Positions 33,977 to 43,638 of a DNA stretch of 58,439 bases are shown piece by piece. Under the pieces are notes generated by a model. That model was not told where the DNA came from and did no database searches. It saw only the letters and a program-made list of their open reading frames with translations. Every line of letters starts with the position of its first letter. Position 1 is the first letter of the stretch. A program made the position numbers and the translations under genes. The stretch comes from Verrucomicrobiota bacterium (lineage in GTDB: Bacteria; Verrucomicrobiota; Verrucomicrobiia; Limisphaerales; J093), in assembly GCA_012517065.1 (NCBI GenBank), contig JAAYVR010000090.1:1-58439 (forward strand), given 5' to 3'.

Positions 33977-35491
33977 ATGAACGGTAGTGTTGTTGACGTT
34001 AGACTGCGCTTTCACCTGTTTTTGTGGTATGGGATGATGGCGCTGGCGGTTTTGTTCCTGGCGTTTTTCCTTGCAGCGAGCCCTTTCTTTGTAGCCTTTA
34101 TGGTGACCGGGCTTGCGTGGTTGGTGCTCTTGCCGTATCACGCGCAAGTCTCTTTTTTCCTCGCGCTCAGCACCTTCAGCTCAGCGCTCATATTGCCGTT
34201 CATACCGGGTCGCCCCTATTTCTGGGAATTCGCGGCGGTGTTGGCGTGGACTGGCATTGTGATAACCATGTGGTTGCGCCGGTACAGACCGGAGTTTCCC
34301 CGATTGTTGAGGGAAAACAGGGCTCTTTTTGTGGCATCGCTCGCATACTGCATCGTGTTGATCATTACGATGCTGGTACGCGGATTTGGTTTGCGGGTGC
34401 TTGGATCAGGCCAAGTGGGCGGCCGTCTGTACATTCAACAACTGTTGTGCGCCGTATTCCCGCTGCTGATGATCATGGTCCGTGTTGATGAGCGGACGGT
34501 GGTGCGATTGTTCACTTTGCAGTATTTGCTTTCGGCCACGTACCTGATTTCGGACTTCGTGTTCGCGTTTGCTCCCCAACCGCTGGTTGGGCTCTTGTAT
34601 TTCTTGGAAATCCCAAATGACGCTTTGAATTTTGAGATTCAAAGCCTGCGTTTTGGCATCCGCCGGTTCCAATCGCTTTCGTATTTTGGCCAGGCGTTTA
34701 TTTATCTGGTGCTGATGTATTATGGGCTGAAAGATTTGATTTCGCGGCGCGGACTGATTGTTTTTCCCGTGACGCTTGCGGTATTTGCGGTGAGCTTGCT
34801 GAGCGGTCATCGTTGGGTAATAGCGATTGTGGGCATCACGGTCCTCTTTGTGGCTTACGCGCAAAGGTTCTACAATCTGCGAAACATGCTCGTGAGCGCC
34901 GGCGTTGCAGCAATCTTACTGGCGCTGACCTACGGGTTTGCAGACCGGATGCCGCAGGCTTTTCAGCGGGCCGTTTCAAATCTGCCCGGCATCAAGCTCG
35001 ATTATCAGGCTCGCCTCGATGCTGAAAACACGATGTACATGCGGCGTATCTTGTTCAGGATCGGGCTCGGGCTCATACCAGATTACTTCTGGATTGGGCG
35101 CGGTTTTGCACGGTTCCTTGACGAATACTCGGCGTATTGGGACCCGACGGTGGTGACGTTCCATGTGAACCAAGGCGCGTTCTACAACGGATTCATTGGT
35201 TTGATGGTAAACACCGGCGTCTTTGGGACCGCGGCAATGTTGTCCTTCTTGTTTCTTGGCTCGCGCAAGGCGTGGCAAATCATGCAGCACCTTCGCACCT
35301 ACGGGTGCGAAGACGTGTTCTCACGCCTTTGCAGTGTGGTAGCCGGGCTCTGGATGGCGAACGTCTTGGCGTTTCTGTTCCTGCACGGGGACAGTGAGTT
35401 TGCCATGAAAACGTTCTCGTTGCAGGCGGGTGCAATCCTGCTTTGCCATCATCTGTTGCGCAAACGACTCGAATCCGCAGCGGCGGCATGA
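33977..35491 (+). CDS. O-antigen ligase/polymerase-like membrane protein
   Basis: A 504-residue polytopic inner-membrane protein with ten or more hydrophobic segments. The Wzy_C/O-antigen-ligase pattern is visible: a large loop after residue 310 (NLPGIKLDYQARLDAENTMYMRRILF), then IGRGFARFLDEYSAYWD before the last membrane helices. Such proteins polymerise or transfer surface polysaccharide from a lipid carrier. Its stop overlaps the start of the glycosyltransferase gene (ATGA), forming an operon with it. Confidence 0.85.
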   Translation: MNGSVVDVRLRFHLFLWYGMMALAVLFLAFFLAASPFFVAFMVTGLAWLVLLPYHAQVSFFLALSTFSSALILPFIPGRPYFWEFAAVLAWTGIVITMWLRRYRPEFPRLLRENRALFVASLAYCIVLIITMLVRGFGLRVLGSGQVGGRLYIQQLLCAVFPLLMIMVRVDERTVVRLFTLQYLLSATYLISDFVFAFAPQPLVGLLYFLEIPNDALNFEIQSLRFGIRRFQSLSYFGQAFIYLVLMYYGLKDLISRRGLIVFPVTLAVFAVSLLSGHRWVIAIVGITVLFVAYAQRFYNLRNMLVSAGVAAILLALTYGFADRMPQAFQRAVSNLPGIKLDYQARLDAENTMYMRRILFRIGLGLIPDYFWIGRGFARFLDEYSAYWDPTVVTFHVNQGAFYNGFIGLMVNTGVFGTAAMLSFLFLGSRKAWQIMQHLRTYGCEDVFSRLCSVVAGLWMANVLAFLFLHGDSEFAMKTFSLQAGAILLCHHLLRKRLESAAAA

Positions 35492-36724: not shown

Positions 36725-37412
36725 GAAGAACGCGCTGATCCCGATGGTTTTTCACGCGCTGTCGCGGATGCAGTGGGCGTTGCTGGGCGCGAAGCGCTTG
36801 GATGCAGTGGGCGTTTGCAGGCGCGAAGCGTTTGGAGTGCGGCAGCTTGCTGCCGCTTTGTTTCTATGCCCAAACAACGTGTCTGTCCCCATATCGCATT
36901 TTCCCCATCAGCCCGATGACAGGTCATGCGACGCGTTTCGATCCCGCAAACCGGGTCACCGAACATACACCGGCTGGGTGCGGCGAAGAATCGCCGCGCT
37001 CCTGCCAACGCGTTGGAGAAAACACCGGCGGTCGGGAGCGCGGCCCTCCTCGGCCGAATCAATCCGACGTCCCGATCTCACACCGGTTTCGATAATCCCA
37101 ATCCGGCGCCCGGACCTTGAACGGCTGGGGATGCGCAAACAACGTGTCTGTCCCCATATCGGCATCCGAGGGGTTCCTCTACAGACTTCGGCAACCGCCG
37201 ATTGGAACAAGGGGCAATTTGAGAGCCACGCCGCAATCAGGGGGCAAAACCCGAACAACGAGCCTGTCACCTTATCCGGCTCACCGCCAAAGGCCGTACC
37301 ATTGTGACCCGCCTTACTGGCGGCCAGAGAAGCAGATACAGATAAACTGACCAAACTCGTAGCGTGAAAACCTTCGCGAATATGAATGGTTTTTGAATAT
37401 AACAATGCAGCC
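36725..37412 (+). repeat. Mosaic repeat block IV (no gene)
   Basis: It contains GTGTCTGTCCCCATATCG words near 36880 and 37144, a GAGCCTGTCACC word near 37260 and the GCTTGCTGCCGC module. It also has the module that reads DWNKGQFESHAAIRGQN. The final part encodes RLTAKGRTIVT, then after a one-base insertion ALLAAREADTDKLTKLVA and a stop: a decayed protein C-terminus shared with blocks II and V. The remaining bases to 37524 show nothing more. Confidence 0.8.
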
Positions 37413-37524: not shown

Positions 37525-38526
37525 TTAGCCAGGATGATCAGAACTTCCCGGGGATCGGACCTGAAGACCTGCGTGCGTGCGCTGTTGCACTGCTGGCACA
37601 TGCTCTTTATTTGCGCCGAGTCCGCTGAACGCCCAGTAGAGTCGGTTGGCAAGGGGAATCAACACCGCTGCTGCCACCGCGCCGCCAGCCACATCAACGG
37701 CATAGTGGTACCTGCAGTACACGGTCGATAGACAAAGCAAGATCACGTCGATCAAGTGAATGTATCGGATTCGCGGCAGGTACCGGAAGGAGAACCAAAG
37801 CGTGCAAAGTGCTATGACTACATGGCTACTGGGAAACGCGGCGCCCGGCCCTTCGAAATTGCGATAAATCCACGCCATGATTTGGAAAAAGAGCCCGCTC
37901 TGCACCGCCGGAGGATAAAACGGTGCCCCCGCATATGCCTGAATCTCATCGGGTAGCCGAAATCCGTCGATTTCGCGGAAAAACGCACGCGGCCCCATTA
38001 CGGGCAGACAAATATAAATCAGGTAACAAATGTAAAAGACGAATGAAACAACGGAGACGTAATGGAAAAACTGTCGCTTGTCGCGCAGGTACAAAGCCAG
38101 TCCTATCCCCGAAATCATGATGTAGTAAGTGAAATAGGCCGCATAGAATATCTCGCTCACCCAAAGACGAGGCAGTGCATACATGAACTCGAGACAGGGC
38201 TGAAAACCGAATATCCGCTCGTCCAACTGGATAAAAAATGCATCGAGATAATCCGGGAAAAACAACCGGTTCAACAAGCCTGTCTCTCTGTAAAACCCGA
38301 TGTACATCGGGATCGGGTAATAATGCCTGAGGAAATCCAGCCAACGGACCGATGGTTTCCTGCTGTGTGCCTGAATCAGAAAGCGCACAAATGCAATGCC
38401 AGCCACATGTGCCAAAAGAAGCCAGGGCCACCACGGCGTGGTCTGATTGTGAAAAAGCAGTATCACAATGGCCACCACAGCCATGTAACCTTGCGTGGCA
38501 TAATCGATGAAAAGGTAGTGTTTCAT
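37525..38526 (-). CDS. PAP2-family membrane protein, Aur1/IPC-synthase-like
   Basis: A 333-residue polytopic membrane protein with about six or seven hydrophobic segments. The PAP2 catalytic motifs are GPGAAFPSSHVVIALC (PSxH box, about residues 227-242) and YCRYHYAVDVAGG (late His-Asp box). FLPDYLD-like and LPVMGPRAFF segments precede them, as in the inositolphosphotransferase/Aur1 branch. It is the last gene of a three-gene unit with a serine-palmitoyltransferase-like and a CerR-like gene. A role in adding a phospho-headgroup to ceramide, or in lipid phosphate removal, is therefore likely (inference). The last 40 residues are non-conserved. Confidence 0.83.
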   Translation of the reverse strand: MKHYLFIDYATQGYMAVVAIVILLFHNQTTPWWPWLLLAHVAGIAFVRFLIQAHSRKPSVRWLDFLRHYYPIPMYIGFYRETGLLNRLFFPDYLDAFFIQLDERIFGFQPCLEFMYALPRLWVSEIFYAAYFTYYIMISGIGLALYLRDKRQFFHYVSVVSFVFYICYLIYICLPVMGPRAFFREIDGFRLPDEIQAYAGAPFYPPAVQSGLFFQIMAWIYRNFEGPGAAFPSSHVVIALCTLWFSFRYLPRIRYIHLIDVILLCLSTVYCRYHYAVDVAGGAVAAAVLIPLANRLYWAFSGLGANKEHVPAVQQRTHAGLQVRSPGSSDHPG

Positions 38527-38553
38527 GCCGTTGCTGGCTGCGCCGACACACCC

Positions 38554-39537
38554 TTAGACCCATCCATGCTCACGGTACCACTTTGCTGTTGCACGTATCC
38601 CATCATGCAATCGCGTTGGACATTCCAATCGCAGTTCCCGAGTGAGTCGTGTGGTGTCGCATACCCACCCCGGAGCGGTAAGCTCCCGATACTTGTCCAA
38701 CCCAAAGATACTTGGACGTCGCGTGACCACCGATGCTGCAGTGGCAAGCCAACAAACAAGCCTGACCACGGCCAAGGGAATGGTCAGTTCCCGAAAGCGC
38801 ACACCAAGAACAGAGGCGATCGCTTCACACAACTGATCGCTGGTCACAACCTCGGGAGACGCCACGTTAACCGTCAAACCGCTCGCCCCGGCATGCGAAA
38901 GTAGTGCCACAACGATCTCCGCAAGGTCCCGCACATATACAAGGTTCAACTCCTGTCTGCGCCGCCCGAATCTTGGCGCAATGCCACGGTTCACAGCCTT
39001 GAAAAGCGATAGAAAAGAGGTGTCGCGCGGACCATATACAGCTGCCGGGCGAACAATGACGTATTCCGCGCTGCATGCTCGGGACACTTCCAGCTCCGAA
39101 GCGAGCTTGCTTCTGCCGTAGGCAGAAACCGGCCGGGGGTCATTCGTTTCCGTCATGGGCGCCGAGGAAGTCCCAGGCCCGCCCGCAGCCACACTCGAAA
39201 TGTACACCAACCGGCGCGCACTGGTTTGGTGTGCATTGACTGCCTCAACGATCCGCCGTGTTCCGCCGACGTTAACGTGGTCAAACTCACTGCGATGCCG
39301 CGCCTTTACAATCCCAGCGCAATGAATGACATGAGTCACATCCGCCAAAGCGGTTTTCAGGCCCTGAACGTCTTCCAGCGATCCGAAGCGCACCTCGACG
39401 CGCGCGAGACGTGATTCAATGAAACGTCTGCTGCTCGAGTTTCTCAGCAGCACCACGGTCGGCACTTCACGCTCACACAGCACATCGAGGATATGGCTGC
39501 CCACAAACCCGCTTGCGCCAGTGAGCAACACCTTCAT
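38554..39537 (-). CDS. Extended SDR epimerase/reductase, CerR-like
   Basis: A 327-residue NAD(P)-dependent extended short-chain reductase. The glycine loop is LLTGASGFVGSHI, the active-site serine region is YISSVAAGG and the catalytic pair is Tyr/Lys in AYGRSKLASE. VIVRPAAVYGPRDTSF follows, as in the nucleoside-sugar epimerase superfamily. In Caulobacter an NAD-dependent epimerase-family protein (CerR) reduces the keto group during sphingolipid synthesis. The position here, 21 bases after the serine-palmitoyltransferase-like gene, suggests the same step. A sugar or sterol reductase is the alternative. Confidence 0.85.
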   Translation of the reverse strand: MKVLLTGASGFVGSHILDVLCEREVPTVVLLRNSSSRRFIESRLARVEVRFGSLEDVQGLKTALADVTHVIHCAGIVKARHRSEFDHVNVGGTRRIVEAVNAHQTSARRLVYISSVAAGGPGTSSAPMTETNDPRPVSAYGRSKLASELEVSRACSAEYVIVRPAAVYGPRDTSFLSLFKAVNRGIAPRFGRRRQELNLVYVRDLAEIVVALLSHAGASGLTVNVASPEVVTSDQLCEAIASVLGVRFRELTIPLAVVRLVCWLATAASVVTRRPSIFGLDKYRELTAPGWVCDTTRLTRELRLECPTRLHDGIRATAKWYREHGWV

Positions 39538-39558
39538 CTGACGTGTCCTCGGGAAGCC

Positions 39559-40884
39559 TCAGATGATGCCGAGCTCGCGCCCCACCTTCGCGAACTTGTC
39601 CAGTGCGAAATCGATCTGGGCGTCGGTGTGCGTTGCCATCAGGCTCACCCGCAACAATTCCTGTCCGGGAGGCACGCCGGGCGACACAACCGGGTTGACG
39701 AAAACGCCTTCTTCTTCGAGCCGCTTGCAGAACTTAAAGGTCACCAGCAAATCCCGACAATACACCGGCAGAATTGGCGTCTGAGACGCGCCAAGATCAA
39801 AACCCAGTGACATGAGCCCGTGCTTCATGCGTTCTGTGTTGTGCCACAGCCTTTGGATGCGATCGGGCTCGTTTTGCATGATTTTCAAAGCGGCAAGAGC
39901 CGCAGCGGCATTAGCAGGGCTCATGCTGGCGCTGAAAATCAATGGCTTCGAGTGATGCTTGAGATAGTCGATTGTGGCATGGTCTGACGCAATGAACCCC
40001 CCGAGGCTCGCCAGTGACTTGCTGAAAGTGCCCATTATCAAATGCACCCTGTCGGTTAGCCCGAAATGGTCGCTGGTCCCAGAACCGTTCTTGCCCAGAA
40101 CGCCTATTGCGTGTGCGTCATCGACCATGACCACTGCTTTGTGCTCGTGCGCAAGCCTGCAAAGTTCGGGCAATTGGATTATGTCCCCTTCCATGCTGAA
40201 CACGCCGTCAACCACAATCAACTTGCCGGCATCCCGGTCAATCATTCGCAGCCGGTTCTCGAGCGCTGCCATGTCGCGGTGGGCAAACCTCAGGAACTTC
40301 CCTTGCGTCAGGAGGCATCCTTCCACGATGCTGGCATGATCACTCTTGTCGGCAATCACGTACTCGCCTTTTCCGACAAGGGCACTGATGACGCCCAGAT
40401 TCACCTGGAACCCGGTGCTGTACAGAAGGACAGCTTCTTTCCCCACCAATCGTGCCAGCGCCTGTTCGAGTTCGAGGTGAATATCCAAAGTCCCGTTAAG
40501 GAATCTCGAACCGGCACAGCCGGTCCCGTATTTCTCGATCGCGGCCTTGGCCGCTTCTTTTATTTTGGGGTGGTTTGTCAGGCCAAGATAGCTGTTGGAC
40601 CCCAACATCAACACCCGCTTTTCATTTATCGTCACCTCCGTGTCCTGAGCGGTGGAGATGGTCCGGAAATAAGGGTAGAGCCCCATGGCTCTTACCTGGG
40701 TCGCACTCCGGAAATTCCGGGTTTTGTCCAGCAGCGACGGCAGTGAATCCCCGGTTCGGTCTGACCGCATCCCAGAACGTTCGGTCTCGCCTGTCGGCGA
40801 GACCGTTGCGCCAGGCAAATCTCCATCGTCAGAAGCACCATTAGGGTGCTTTGATTTGGTTGTAATCTGTTCAGCTCTCTTCAT
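39559..40884 (-). CDS. spt: Serine palmitoyltransferase-like alpha-oxoamine synthase
   Basis: A PLP-dependent fold-type I enzyme of the AONS/KBL/SPT family, condensing an amino acid with an acyl thioester. Visible motifs are [54 protein letters not shown] and [13 protein letters not shown] with the Schiff-base lysine (codon at 40018-40020). TFSKS is typical of serine palmitoyltransferase, whereas AONS and KBL usually have GT(L/F)xKAxG. It heads an operon with the CerR-like and PAP2-like genes, supporting sphingolipid synthesis. The N-terminus is uncertain: ATGs at 40947, 40884 and 40770; the last gives about 403 residues, the usual family length. Confidence 0.88.
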
Positions 40885-41273: not shown

Positions 41274-41900
41274 TTATCTTCGCGGGCACCTGACTCTTCG
41301 ATGGATCGCCAAAGCCAAGAGCCCCCCTGCCGCGGCAGCGGCAAGCGCACTCGGTTCGGGCACGGGGGTCACTTGACCAAAACCCGAGACGTTGTCGAGG
41401 CGGAGGTTGCCCGTGCTTGCAGCATTCCAGCCGTAGAACCTGAATTCGAGTGTTTCCCAATCTCGGACCGTGACGTCAGAAAAGTCGAACGTGCGACCGG
41501 TCATGGCTGTGTCGATTGTGTAATCGACGCTGCTTTCGATAACGCTGCCGTCCTTCAAGACTGACACTCGACCTGATTGAGGGCCGCTGGTGCTGCGTGA
41601 GACGTCATATTGAAGACTCTCGAGGCGCAGGCTATACCCGGTCTCAGGCTTGAGCGTGAATGAAACGTATTCGGAAAGATCAACCTGCCCAGTGTTCCAG
41701 TGCGAACTCGAAAACATATCGGACTGACTGACCGCGCCAACGTTAACCCTCGTAAACGGGCTTAATGTCAGGTGTTCCACTGACGGCACCAACGCGTCCC
41801 CAGCCGGGTCCGCACCGGCGAAATCGTAAGTAAACAAAACTTGGCCGTTCAATTGCGGCAGAATACCCACAACAGCTATTGCAGTTACGAACTCTTTCAT
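41274..41900 (-). CDS. PEP-CTERM sorting domain protein
   Basis: A 208-residue exported protein. A signal peptide (KEFVTAIAVVGILPQLNG) is followed by a beta-rich domain with LDNVSGFG near the end. The C-terminus is a canonical PEP-CTERM tripartite signal: TPVPEPSALA, a hydrophobic helix (AAAAGGLLALAI) and a basic tail (HRRVRCPRR). Such proteins are processed by an exosortase, which is not in this window. AAGGAGG lies four bases before the ATG, an unusually strong ribosome-binding site here. Confidence 0.92.
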   Translation of the reverse strand: MKEFVTAIAVVGILPQLNGQVLFTYDFAGADPAGDALVPSVEHLTLSPFTRVNVGAVSQSDMFSSSHWNTGQVDLSEYVSFTLKPETGYSLRLESLQYDVSRSTSGPQSGRVSVLKDGSVIESSVDYTIDTAMTGRTFDFSDVTVRDWETLEFRFYGWNAASTGNLRLDNVSGFGQVTPVPEPSALAAAAAGGLLALAIHRRVRCPRR

Positions 41901-43270: not shown

Positions 43271-43420
43271 GGCATGCGAATAGAGTGCCAGACACGATAT
43301 TCAACGCCTCCGTGGCATGCGAATAGAGTGCCAGACACTATGTTCAGGGCGTCAGGTGGCGGTCTGATCTGCCGCCGATTGGCGGATCGGGAAATAGAGT
43401 GCCAGACACGATGTCTTCTG
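43271..43420 (-). repeat. Three copies of the word GTGTCTGGCACTCTATT
   Basis: On the plus strand AATAGAGTGCCAGACAC occurs three times within 140 bases (near 43280, 43320 and 43392). The first two follow GGCATGCG. This is the GGCACT variant of the dispersed word in the large blocks, here without the other modules. It sits directly upstream of the GT9 gene. Confidence 0.75.
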
Positions 43421-43638
43421 TTTCGATTTTGGCTTGCATCGCTTTGCGCGAGAGTCCGGTGAAACGGAGTGGGCACCGTGCCTCTCACGAAATCTGGCTG
43501 TTTTGACAGTAAATCATGGCGTCTTGGGAGTCGGACGTGTTAGTATGCGCTGGTGTTCGGCCGTGGCTGGCGAGAGTTCCTGGCTAGAAGAACTGAGAGG
43601 CTATGTTACATGTTGCTAGGGTAGAGTGAGTTGCAAGC

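What the first reader, a model, noticed from the sequence alone, without database searches (positions are those of the whole stretch)
37525..40884. Compact three-gene putative sphingolipid operon (SPT-like, CerR-like, PAP2/Aur1-like)
Seen: three minus-strand genes with 21- and 27-base gaps encode an alpha-oxoamine synthase with the SPT-type TFSKS lysine motif, an extended SDR with YxxxK, and a PAP2 protein with PSSH and RxxxAVD boxes. Known: bacterial sphingolipid pathways use serine palmitoyltransferase and an epimerase-family reductase (CerR in Caulobacter), and Bacteroides uses a PAP2-like inositol phosphorylceramide synthase. Inference: this lineage makes a phosphosphingolipid from an unusually short locus without an adjacent ceramide synthase or inositol-phosphate synthase. 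It is flanked by O-antigen ligase, GT4 and GT9 genes, hinting at a mixed sphingolipid/LPS outer membrane.
Basis: partly seen in the sequence, partly recalled or inferred. Interest (0 to 1): 0.75.

Follow-up and report, generated by a model that had tools for sequence, protein, structure and literature searches.

The report
Bacterial sphingolipid operon with Aur1-like enzyme
A bacterium, probably a Verrucomicrobiota, carries a conserved three-gene cluster that very probably makes sphingolipids, with a last enzyme that looks like the yeast ceramide-headgroup enzyme Aur1 although no inositol-making genes were found, so it most likely attaches a different headgroup.

Summary
In detail: three minus-strand genes at 37525-40884 encode a serine palmitoyltransferase (SPT), a CerR-like reductase and a PAP2 membrane protein. 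The order is kept in 17 of 20 PAP2-bearing genomes of the same taxonomic order (window included). In 8 of 80 named loci, labelled with other phyla, the operon has four genes, SPT-bCerS-CerR-PAP2; in 29 of 80, bCerS lies convergently after PAP2. A pathway without ceramide synthase is not: a bCerS homologue lies on another contig, and bCerS co-occurs with PAP2 across relatives. Inositol is unlikely: MIPS is absent in 20 of 20 PAP2 genomes and no PI synthase was found here, while PssA and PSD (phosphatidylethanolamine) are present. PAP2 has the Aur1 fold and His-His-Asp residues but does not match the BT_1522-type IPC synthase model. Best reading: an Aur1-like ceramide-headgroup transferase using PE (or PG) on the periplasmic side. 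Side result: 13 of 14 genomes with an unlinked PAP2-bCerS pair have no detectable SPT or CerR, which hints at salvage or another substrate. Reactions, headgroup and salvage are inferred, not shown.

The parts
39559..40884 (-). Serine palmitoyltransferase (SPT), 441 aa as called; the first ~50 aa are a variable leader
   Evidence: NF047600 608 bits (cut-off 640) vs 414 for the next family; 483 bits to solved SPTs 8guh/3a2b vs 291 for KBL 1fc4; SPT side of the tree, 100/99
38554..39537 (-). CerR-like extended SDR (predicted 3-keto-ceramide / 3-ketosphinganine reductase), 327 aa
   Evidence: 30% identity over 306 columns to the E. coli BL21 CerR homologue, E 8e-32; best hit of that protein in this genome; lies between bCerS and PAP2 in four-gene operons
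37525..38526 (-). Aur1-like PAP2 (PAP2_3) membrane protein, probable ceramide-headgroup transferase, 333 aa
   Evidence: PF14378 66 bits; AlphaFold pLDDT 88.6; Aur1 chains rank first, Z 18.3/18.1 over 270/266 residues; His235/His274/Asp278 align with His/His/Asp of Aur1

Best explanation
The three genes are the SPT, reductase and headgroup steps of a sphingolipid pathway. SPT condenses serine with an acyl thioester in the cytoplasm. A bCerS encoded elsewhere in the genome (contig C81) N-acylates the product. The CerR-like SDR reduces the 3-keto group. The Aur1-like PAP2 enzyme then moves a phospho-headgroup from a phospholipid, most likely phosphatidylethanolamine (phosphatidylglycerol next), onto ceramide on the periplasmic leaflet, with its conserved histidines and aspartate as catalysts. 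Shown by sequence: gene identities, conserved operon, presence of bCerS, PE and lipid A genes, no inositol genes found, Aur1 fold. Inferred: the reactions, their order, the headgroup, the side of the membrane, and delivery to the outer membrane.
For: SPT. CerR. Triad together in 17 of 20 PAP2-bearing genomes of the order; SPT adjacent in 42, SDR in 49 and bCerS in 39 of 80 named loci. SPT-bCerS-CerR-PAP2 operon in 8 of 80, with 4-base overlaps in some. bCerS homologue in own genome, 36% identity, query residues 16-379 of 380; of 58 genomes 16 have PAP2 and bCerS, 4 PAP2 only, 3 bCerS only, 35 neither, Fisher p 4.4e-8. Aur1 fold and residues. MIPS in 0 of 20 PAP2 genomes, while the same search rings in the Bacteroides control; PgsA and PssA above cut-off and no PI synthase in this genome; PSD present. 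Loop charges fit catalytic residues outside the cytoplasm (helices assigned by hand).
Against: No biochemistry or lipidomics. P0001 scores 608 bits, under NF047600's cut-off of 640, as do all 58 genomes searched. 4 of 20 PAP2 genomes have no bCerS hit (G001 89%, G004 93%, G008 80%, G009 88% complete). G037 and G047 have PAP2 and bCerS but no SPT or CerR hit, so PAP2 is not strictly tied to SPT. PAP2 phosphatases share the core fold (LpxE Z 13.7, G6PC1 14.0) and weak PgpB-model matches occur in 10 of 20 members, so hydrolysis is not excluded. The Fisher test ignores relatedness. Scavenged inositol is not excluded. The E. coli CerR and bCerS used as probes are themselves predicted homologues of Caulobacter genes.
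Confidence: 0.68

Rival explanations
1. The PAP2 protein is an inositol phosphorylceramide synthase like BT_1522 or Aur1.
For: Closest solved structures by sequence profile and fold are Aur1; 4 of 20 family members match NF052609, phosphoinositol dihydroceramide synthase, best E 2.7e-7.
Against: MIPS absent in all 20 PAP2-bearing genomes of the order; no PI synthase among the four CDP-alcohol transferases found in this genome; P0003 itself does not match NF052609 at E<=1.
Confidence: 0.1
2. The PAP2 protein is a lipid phosphatase (for example of ceramide-1-phosphate, long-chain-base phosphate, lipid A or undecaprenyl diphosphate) and not a transferase.
For: Many PAP2 proteins are phosphatases (recalled); G6PC1 Z 14.0, LpxE 13.7, Bacillus PgpB-type 13.0; weak matches to the PgpB model in 10 of 20 members.
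Against: Aur1 chains score clearly higher (Z 18.3/18.1) with 266-270 aligned residues against 162-192 for the phosphatases listed. Linkage to ceramide genes in loci labelled with several phyla fits headgroup addition. A ceramide kinase was not looked for in the genome.
Confidence: 0.2
3. The alpha-oxoamine synthase is not an SPT but a KBL, BioF, ALAS or cysteate acyltransferase, and the cluster makes another lipid such as a sulfonolipid.
For: All belong to one enzyme family; a cysteate acyltransferase (28eh) is matched at 225 bits.
Against: SPT 483 bits vs 291 KBL, 225 cysteate acyltransferase, 191 BioF; SPT side of the tree 100/99 (ALAS and cysteate acyltransferase were not in the tree); the genome has its own KBL- and BioF-clade proteins; the neighbour is CerR-like.
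Confidence: 0.03

Closest known systems
Caulobacter / E. coli BL21 ceramide cluster (spt, cerR, bcerS, acpR, aasR; PMC9386255 and PMC11324152, passages and introduction read)
   Same: SPT, CerR-like SDR and bCerS homologues
   Different: SPT here scores best with the Bacteroidota-type model; no acyl carrier protein or acyl-ACP synthetase among the neighbours seen (not searched genome-wide); an Aur1-like PAP2 stands in the operon
Bacteroides thetaiotaomicron SPT BT_0870 and IPC synthase BT_1522 (PMC9246714, PMC8791184, PMC9278070, passages read)
   Same: SPT type; an Aur1-homologous PAP2 acting on ceramide
   Different: BT_1522 sits with MIPS and a PI synthase, neither found here; P0003 does not match NF052609; in Bacteroides the SPT and reductase genes are not clustered
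Yeast Aur1 (9ivc, 9vj4)
   Same: Fold over most of the chain, aligned His/His/Asp
   Different: 15% identity; the donor PI is not made here as far as found; no Kei1 partner was looked for
Human SMSr (8ijq), which makes ceramide phosphoethanolamine from PE (abstract start of PMC7988496)
   Same: The reaction proposed here
   Different: Weaker fold match (Z 10.9, 208 residues)

Membership tests
Serine palmitoyltransferase | PLP lysine and active-site His/Asp/His/Arg | tested here: met
   Lys289, His183, Asp255, His258, Arg412 invariant in 13 aligned SPTs incl. E. coli SPT; their roles are recalled
Serine palmitoyltransferase | Groups with known SPTs, apart from KBL and BioF | tested here: met
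   Branch support 100/99; ALAS and cysteate acyltransferase not in the tree, only scored
NF047600 SerpalmtaseCFB equivalog | Score above curated cut-off of 640 bits | tested here: not met
   608.3 bits; 0 of 58 genomes pass
Serine palmitoyltransferase | Serine + palmitoyl-CoA activity | not testable with these tools
   needs an enzyme assay
Bacterial ceramide reductase CerR | Orthology to CerR | tested here: inconclusive
   E. coli CerR homologue's best hit in this genome is P0002 (90.1 bits, next 67.4), 30% identity; Caulobacter CerR was not at hand
Bacterial ceramide reductase CerR | Rossmann GxxGxxG and YxxxK | tested here: met
   GASGFVG at 7-13; YGRSK at 140
Bacterial ceramide reductase CerR | Periplasmic location (PMC11087976, passages read) | not tested
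   no signal-peptide test run
Aur1-type PAP2 ceramide-headgroup transferase | PAP2_3 domain, Aur1 fold, His/His/Asp | tested here: met
   20 of 20 members PF14378; Z 18.3, 270 residues, rmsd 4.9; residues aligned
Inositol phosphorylceramide synthase (BT_1522 type) | Match to NF052609 PhinosDhcerSyn | tested here: not met
   P0003 no match at E<=1; 4 of 20 members match, best E 2.7e-7
Inositol phosphorylceramide synthase (BT_1522 type) | Inositol supply: MIPS and PI synthase in the genome | tested here: not met
   MIPS 0 of 20 PAP2 genomes; no PI synthase among 4 CDP-alcohol transferases of this genome
Ceramide phosphoethanolamine synthase | Transfers phosphoethanolamine from PE to ceramide | not testable with these tools
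   PssA and PSD present; activity unknown
Bacterial ceramide synthase bCerS (off-window, G000:C81) | Full-length homology to E. coli YghO, homologue of Caulobacter CC_1154 | tested here: met
   240.8 bits, residues 16-379 of 380, 36% identity; GNAT model PF00583 in 17 of 19 aligned members at E<=0.01

The most novel reading that the evidence does not exclude
This PAP2 family is a new bacterial ceramide-headgroup synthase, most likely making ethanolamine phosphoceramide, a step for which no enzyme was found in Bacteroides (whether Bacteroides has a homologue was not tested). It is linked with SPT, bCerS and CerR in loci labelled with at least five phyla. In several Verrucomicrobiota lineages the bCerS-PAP2 half stands alone without SPT and CerR and works as a salvage pathway that acylates and decorates long-chain bases taken from neighbours.
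Probability: 0.3. Interest if true: 0.78.

Novelty: new variant of a known kind. Interest (0 to 1): 0.58.

Why it matters
It ties sphingolipid synthesis in Verrucomicrobiota of the subdivision 3 kind, and in loci labelled with several other phyla, to a compact, recognisable operon that includes a headgroup enzyme; the environmental survey I could read in part (PMC11334938) looked for SPT, bCerS and CerR. It gives a concrete candidate for a bacterial ethanolamine-type ceramide synthase. The bCerS-PAP2 pairs in genomes without SPT make the open question of bacterial sphingolipid salvage (raised in the introduction of PMC11324152) directly testable.

Tried and rejected
Sequence search of P0003 alone against PDB gave nothing; a profile was needed. 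Looking for further conserved genes beside the triad in 20 neighbourhoods: none shared widely apart from bCerS; a first gene caller was misled by antisense ORFs and was replaced. Looking for a conserved third gene beside SPT-less PAP2-bCerS pairs: none. A BT_1522 sequence for direct comparison was not at hand; the NF052609 model was used instead. Stankeviciute et al. 2022 (recalled) is not held. Nine paper searches found no paper that describes this operon, judged from titles and abstract starts; most subscription papers are not in that library, so absence from print is not shown. In the fold list a family that does not appear is not excluded.
Full report
WHAT IS THERE. The window is contig C228 of a 5.26 Mb, 298-contig genome (95.4% complete). 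Three ORFs on the minus strand encode an alpha-oxoamine synthase (39559-40884), an extended SDR (38554-39537) and a PAP2 protein (37525-38526), separated by 21 and 27 bases. The closest named relative, with PAP2 95% identical, is a Verrucomicrobiota MAG (L120), and most of the 80 named loci are labelled Verrucomicrobiota, several of them Limisphaerales, Pedosphaera(les) or subdivision 3. That the window belongs to that group is inferred from these names.

THE FIRST GENE IS AN SPT. NCBIfam's SPT model NF047600 scores 608 bits (cut-off 640, so under the curated line), the next family 414. Among solved structures, SPT 8guh/3a2b (Sphingobacterium multivorum, name recalled) scores 483 bits, KBL 1fc4 291, cysteate fatty acyltransferase 28eh 225 and BioF 1bs0 191. 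In a tree of 32 sequences P0001 falls on the SPT side (100/99) with 3a2b, 2x8u and the E. coli BL21 SPT, while E. coli KBL and BioF, two paralogues of this genome (C9, C272) and the best hits of six relatives without this SPT type fall on the other side. The program flagged long branches (E. coli BioF, 7poa, E. coli SPT, 2x8u). Five active-site residues are invariant in 13 aligned SPTs.

THE SECOND GENE IS CerR-LIKE. PMC9386255 (passages read) names the E. coli BL21 homologues of the Caulobacter genes: spt, epi (cerR) and yghO (bCerS); the E. coli reductase and acyltransferase functions are themselves predictions. I fetched that cluster. The E. coli CerR homologue is 30% identical to P0002 over 306 columns (E 8e-32), and P0002 is its best hit in this genome (90.1 bits; next 67.4). 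Both have HpnA as best NCBIfam match, far below its cut-off. PDB hits of P0002 are epimerase-type SDRs plus NDUFA9-type subunits; a NDUFA9 relation was reported for CerR (PMC11087976, passages).

A CERAMIDE SYNTHASE HOMOLOGUE EXISTS IN THE GENOME. E. coli YghO finds a near full-length homologue at C81:4703-5791 (36% identity, 240.8 bits). Of 58 genomes searched, 19 have such a gene and 20 have the PAP2 (the 47.7-bit hit of G050 not counted); both occur in 16, PAP2 only in 4 (G001, G004, G008, G009), bCerS only in 3 (G002, G003, G014), neither in 35 (Fisher p 4.4e-8, which ignores kinship). In three genomes it sits next to PAP2 (G023, G030, G037).

THE OPERON IS CONSERVED AND HAS A FOUR-GENE FORM. 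SPT-SDR-PAP2 stand together in 17 of the 20 PAP2-bearing genomes, the window's included (exceptions G008 near a contig end, G037, G047). A scan of named genomes with the PAP2 profile confirmed 378 stretches and kept the best 80 loci; the others were not seen. Of the 80, each counted once: SPT-SDR-PAP2 without bCerS 20; SPT-SDR-PAP2 plus convergent bCerS 14; SPT-bCerS-SDR-PAP2 on one strand 8; PAP2 plus convergent bCerS 15; PAP2 alone 16; SDR-PAP2 cut at a contig end 5; two other orders. So SPT is adjacent in 42, SDR in 49, bCerS in 39, and a convergent bCerS in 29, of which 28 are labelled Verrucomicrobiota or a group within it. The eight four-gene loci are labelled Planctomycetota or planctomycete (2), Deltaproteobacteria or Desulfobacteraceae (2), Gemmatimonadota (2), Lentisphaerae (1) and uncultured bacterium (1); these are MAG labels and binning errors cannot be excluded. 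In several of them neighbouring genes overlap by 4 bases (own gene caller, starts approximate). PMC11324152 (introduction read) states that bacterial cerS always lies in another operon than the de novo genes; these loci are counter-examples. The triad in the window is thus one form of a ceramide operon whose bCerS lies elsewhere.

THE PAP2 PROTEIN IS AUR1-LIKE. All 20 family members match PF14378. A profile of them finds Aur1 as best solved chain (E 3.8e-5; best non-Aur1 chain a Bacillus phosphatase at 0.007), aligning His235, His274 and Asp278 with His, His and Asp of Aur1 (that these are catalytic there is recalled). AlphaFold gives pLDDT 88.6, pTM 0.86. Foldseek ranks Aur1 chains 9vj4 and 9ivc first (E 7e-5, 6e-4) and no other chain under 0.001; VIA-align gives Z 18.3 for 9ivc and 18.1 for 9vj4 over 270 and 266 residues, against 14.0 for G6PC1, 13.7 for LpxE and 10.9 for human SMSr. 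Loop charges fit catalytic residues outside the cytoplasm, with helices assigned by hand.

THE HEADGROUP IS PROBABLY NOT INOSITOL. MIPS (PF01658) is missing in all 20 PAP2 genomes and present in 2 of 58 (G018, G031, both without PAP2), while the same search rings in the Bacteroides control. The four CDP-alcohol transferases found in this genome are a PgsA and a PssA above cut-off and two PgsA/ClsA-like proteins below it; every inositol-type model scores 40.1 bits or less, against cut-offs of 170 or more. PssA and a PS decarboxylase stand side by side on C230. NF052609, the phosphoinositol dihydroceramide synthase model, does not match P0003 at E<=1; 4 of 20 members match it (best E 2.7e-7), and 10 of 20 weakly match PgpB. 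PE is therefore the likeliest donor, PG the next; this is inference. PMC8791184 (passages) reports that ethanolamine phosphoceramide is a main Bacteroides sphingolipid and that a search with the fly EPC synthase found no match there.

AN UNEXPLAINED HALF-PATHWAY. Of 14 genomes with a convergent PAP2-bCerS pair and no SPT beside it (15 loci; L186 is from the same assembly as L185), 13 have no SPT-grade hit (best 323 bits, 42% identity, in G061; hits of 244-301 bits from other genomes fell with KBL or BioF) and no CerR hit at E<=1e-30 anywhere; the exception, G059, has both, side by side. G037 (96% complete) and G047 (93%) behave alike. The 13 are not all independent: L168/L169 and L188/L191 are near-copies. 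Completeness of G058-G089 is not given. On the PAP2 tree the SPT-less state needs 7 changes (at least 6 forced by well-supported branches) and includes one clade of 8 rows from at most 7 assemblies, which missing data alone would hardly give. So SPT and CerR come and go together in these genomes, while bCerS and PAP2 can stay. Salvage of outside long-chain bases is one reading; another N-acylated substrate is the other. It also weakens a strict link between PAP2 and de novo synthesis.

LITERATURE. PMC11334938 (passages) lists 22 Verrucomicrobiota and 138 Planctomycetota MAGs with Spt-like proteins, so SPT in these phyla is known; the words PAP2 and Aur1 do not occur in it. No paper found by the nine searches describes the SPT-bCerS-CerR-PAP2 operon, judged from listings, but the library lacks most subscription papers.

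VERDICT. A real, conserved operon, very probably for sphingolipids; a new variant of a known kind. The most interesting parts are the Aur1-like headgroup enzyme in genomes without inositol synthesis and the SPT-less bCerS-PAP2 pairs; neither is functionally proven.

Noticed in passing
L138, L162, L163, L167-L169, L183, L185, L187, L188, L191, L192, L198: Convergent PAP2-bCerS pairs in genomes with no detectable SPT or CerR (13 of 14 such genomes); no conserved third gene beside them.
   Followed up: partly
L158, L159, L176, L178, L189, L190, L195, L199: SPT-bCerS-CerR-PAP2 operons in loci not labelled Verrucomicrobiota; in the two Gemmatimonadota a sigma-factor-like and an anti-sigma-like protein follow (named by eye, not tested).
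   Followed up: partly
L176 7902-10591: A Planctomycetota locus holds a second SDR and a second, divergent PAP2 close behind the four-gene operon.
   Followed up: no
window 36866-37277 and 43271-43424: Two sets of imperfect direct repeats (three copies of 31 nt and three of 40 nt), one on each side of the region; kind unknown.
   Followed up: no
window 41274-41900 (-): A protein with a PEP-CTERM motif lies just upstream of the operon.
   Followed up: no
window 33977-35491 (+): The supposed O-antigen ligase, a 504-aa multi-pass-looking protein, matches no Pfam model at E<=10; it is conserved in the same-genus relative.
   Followed up: partly
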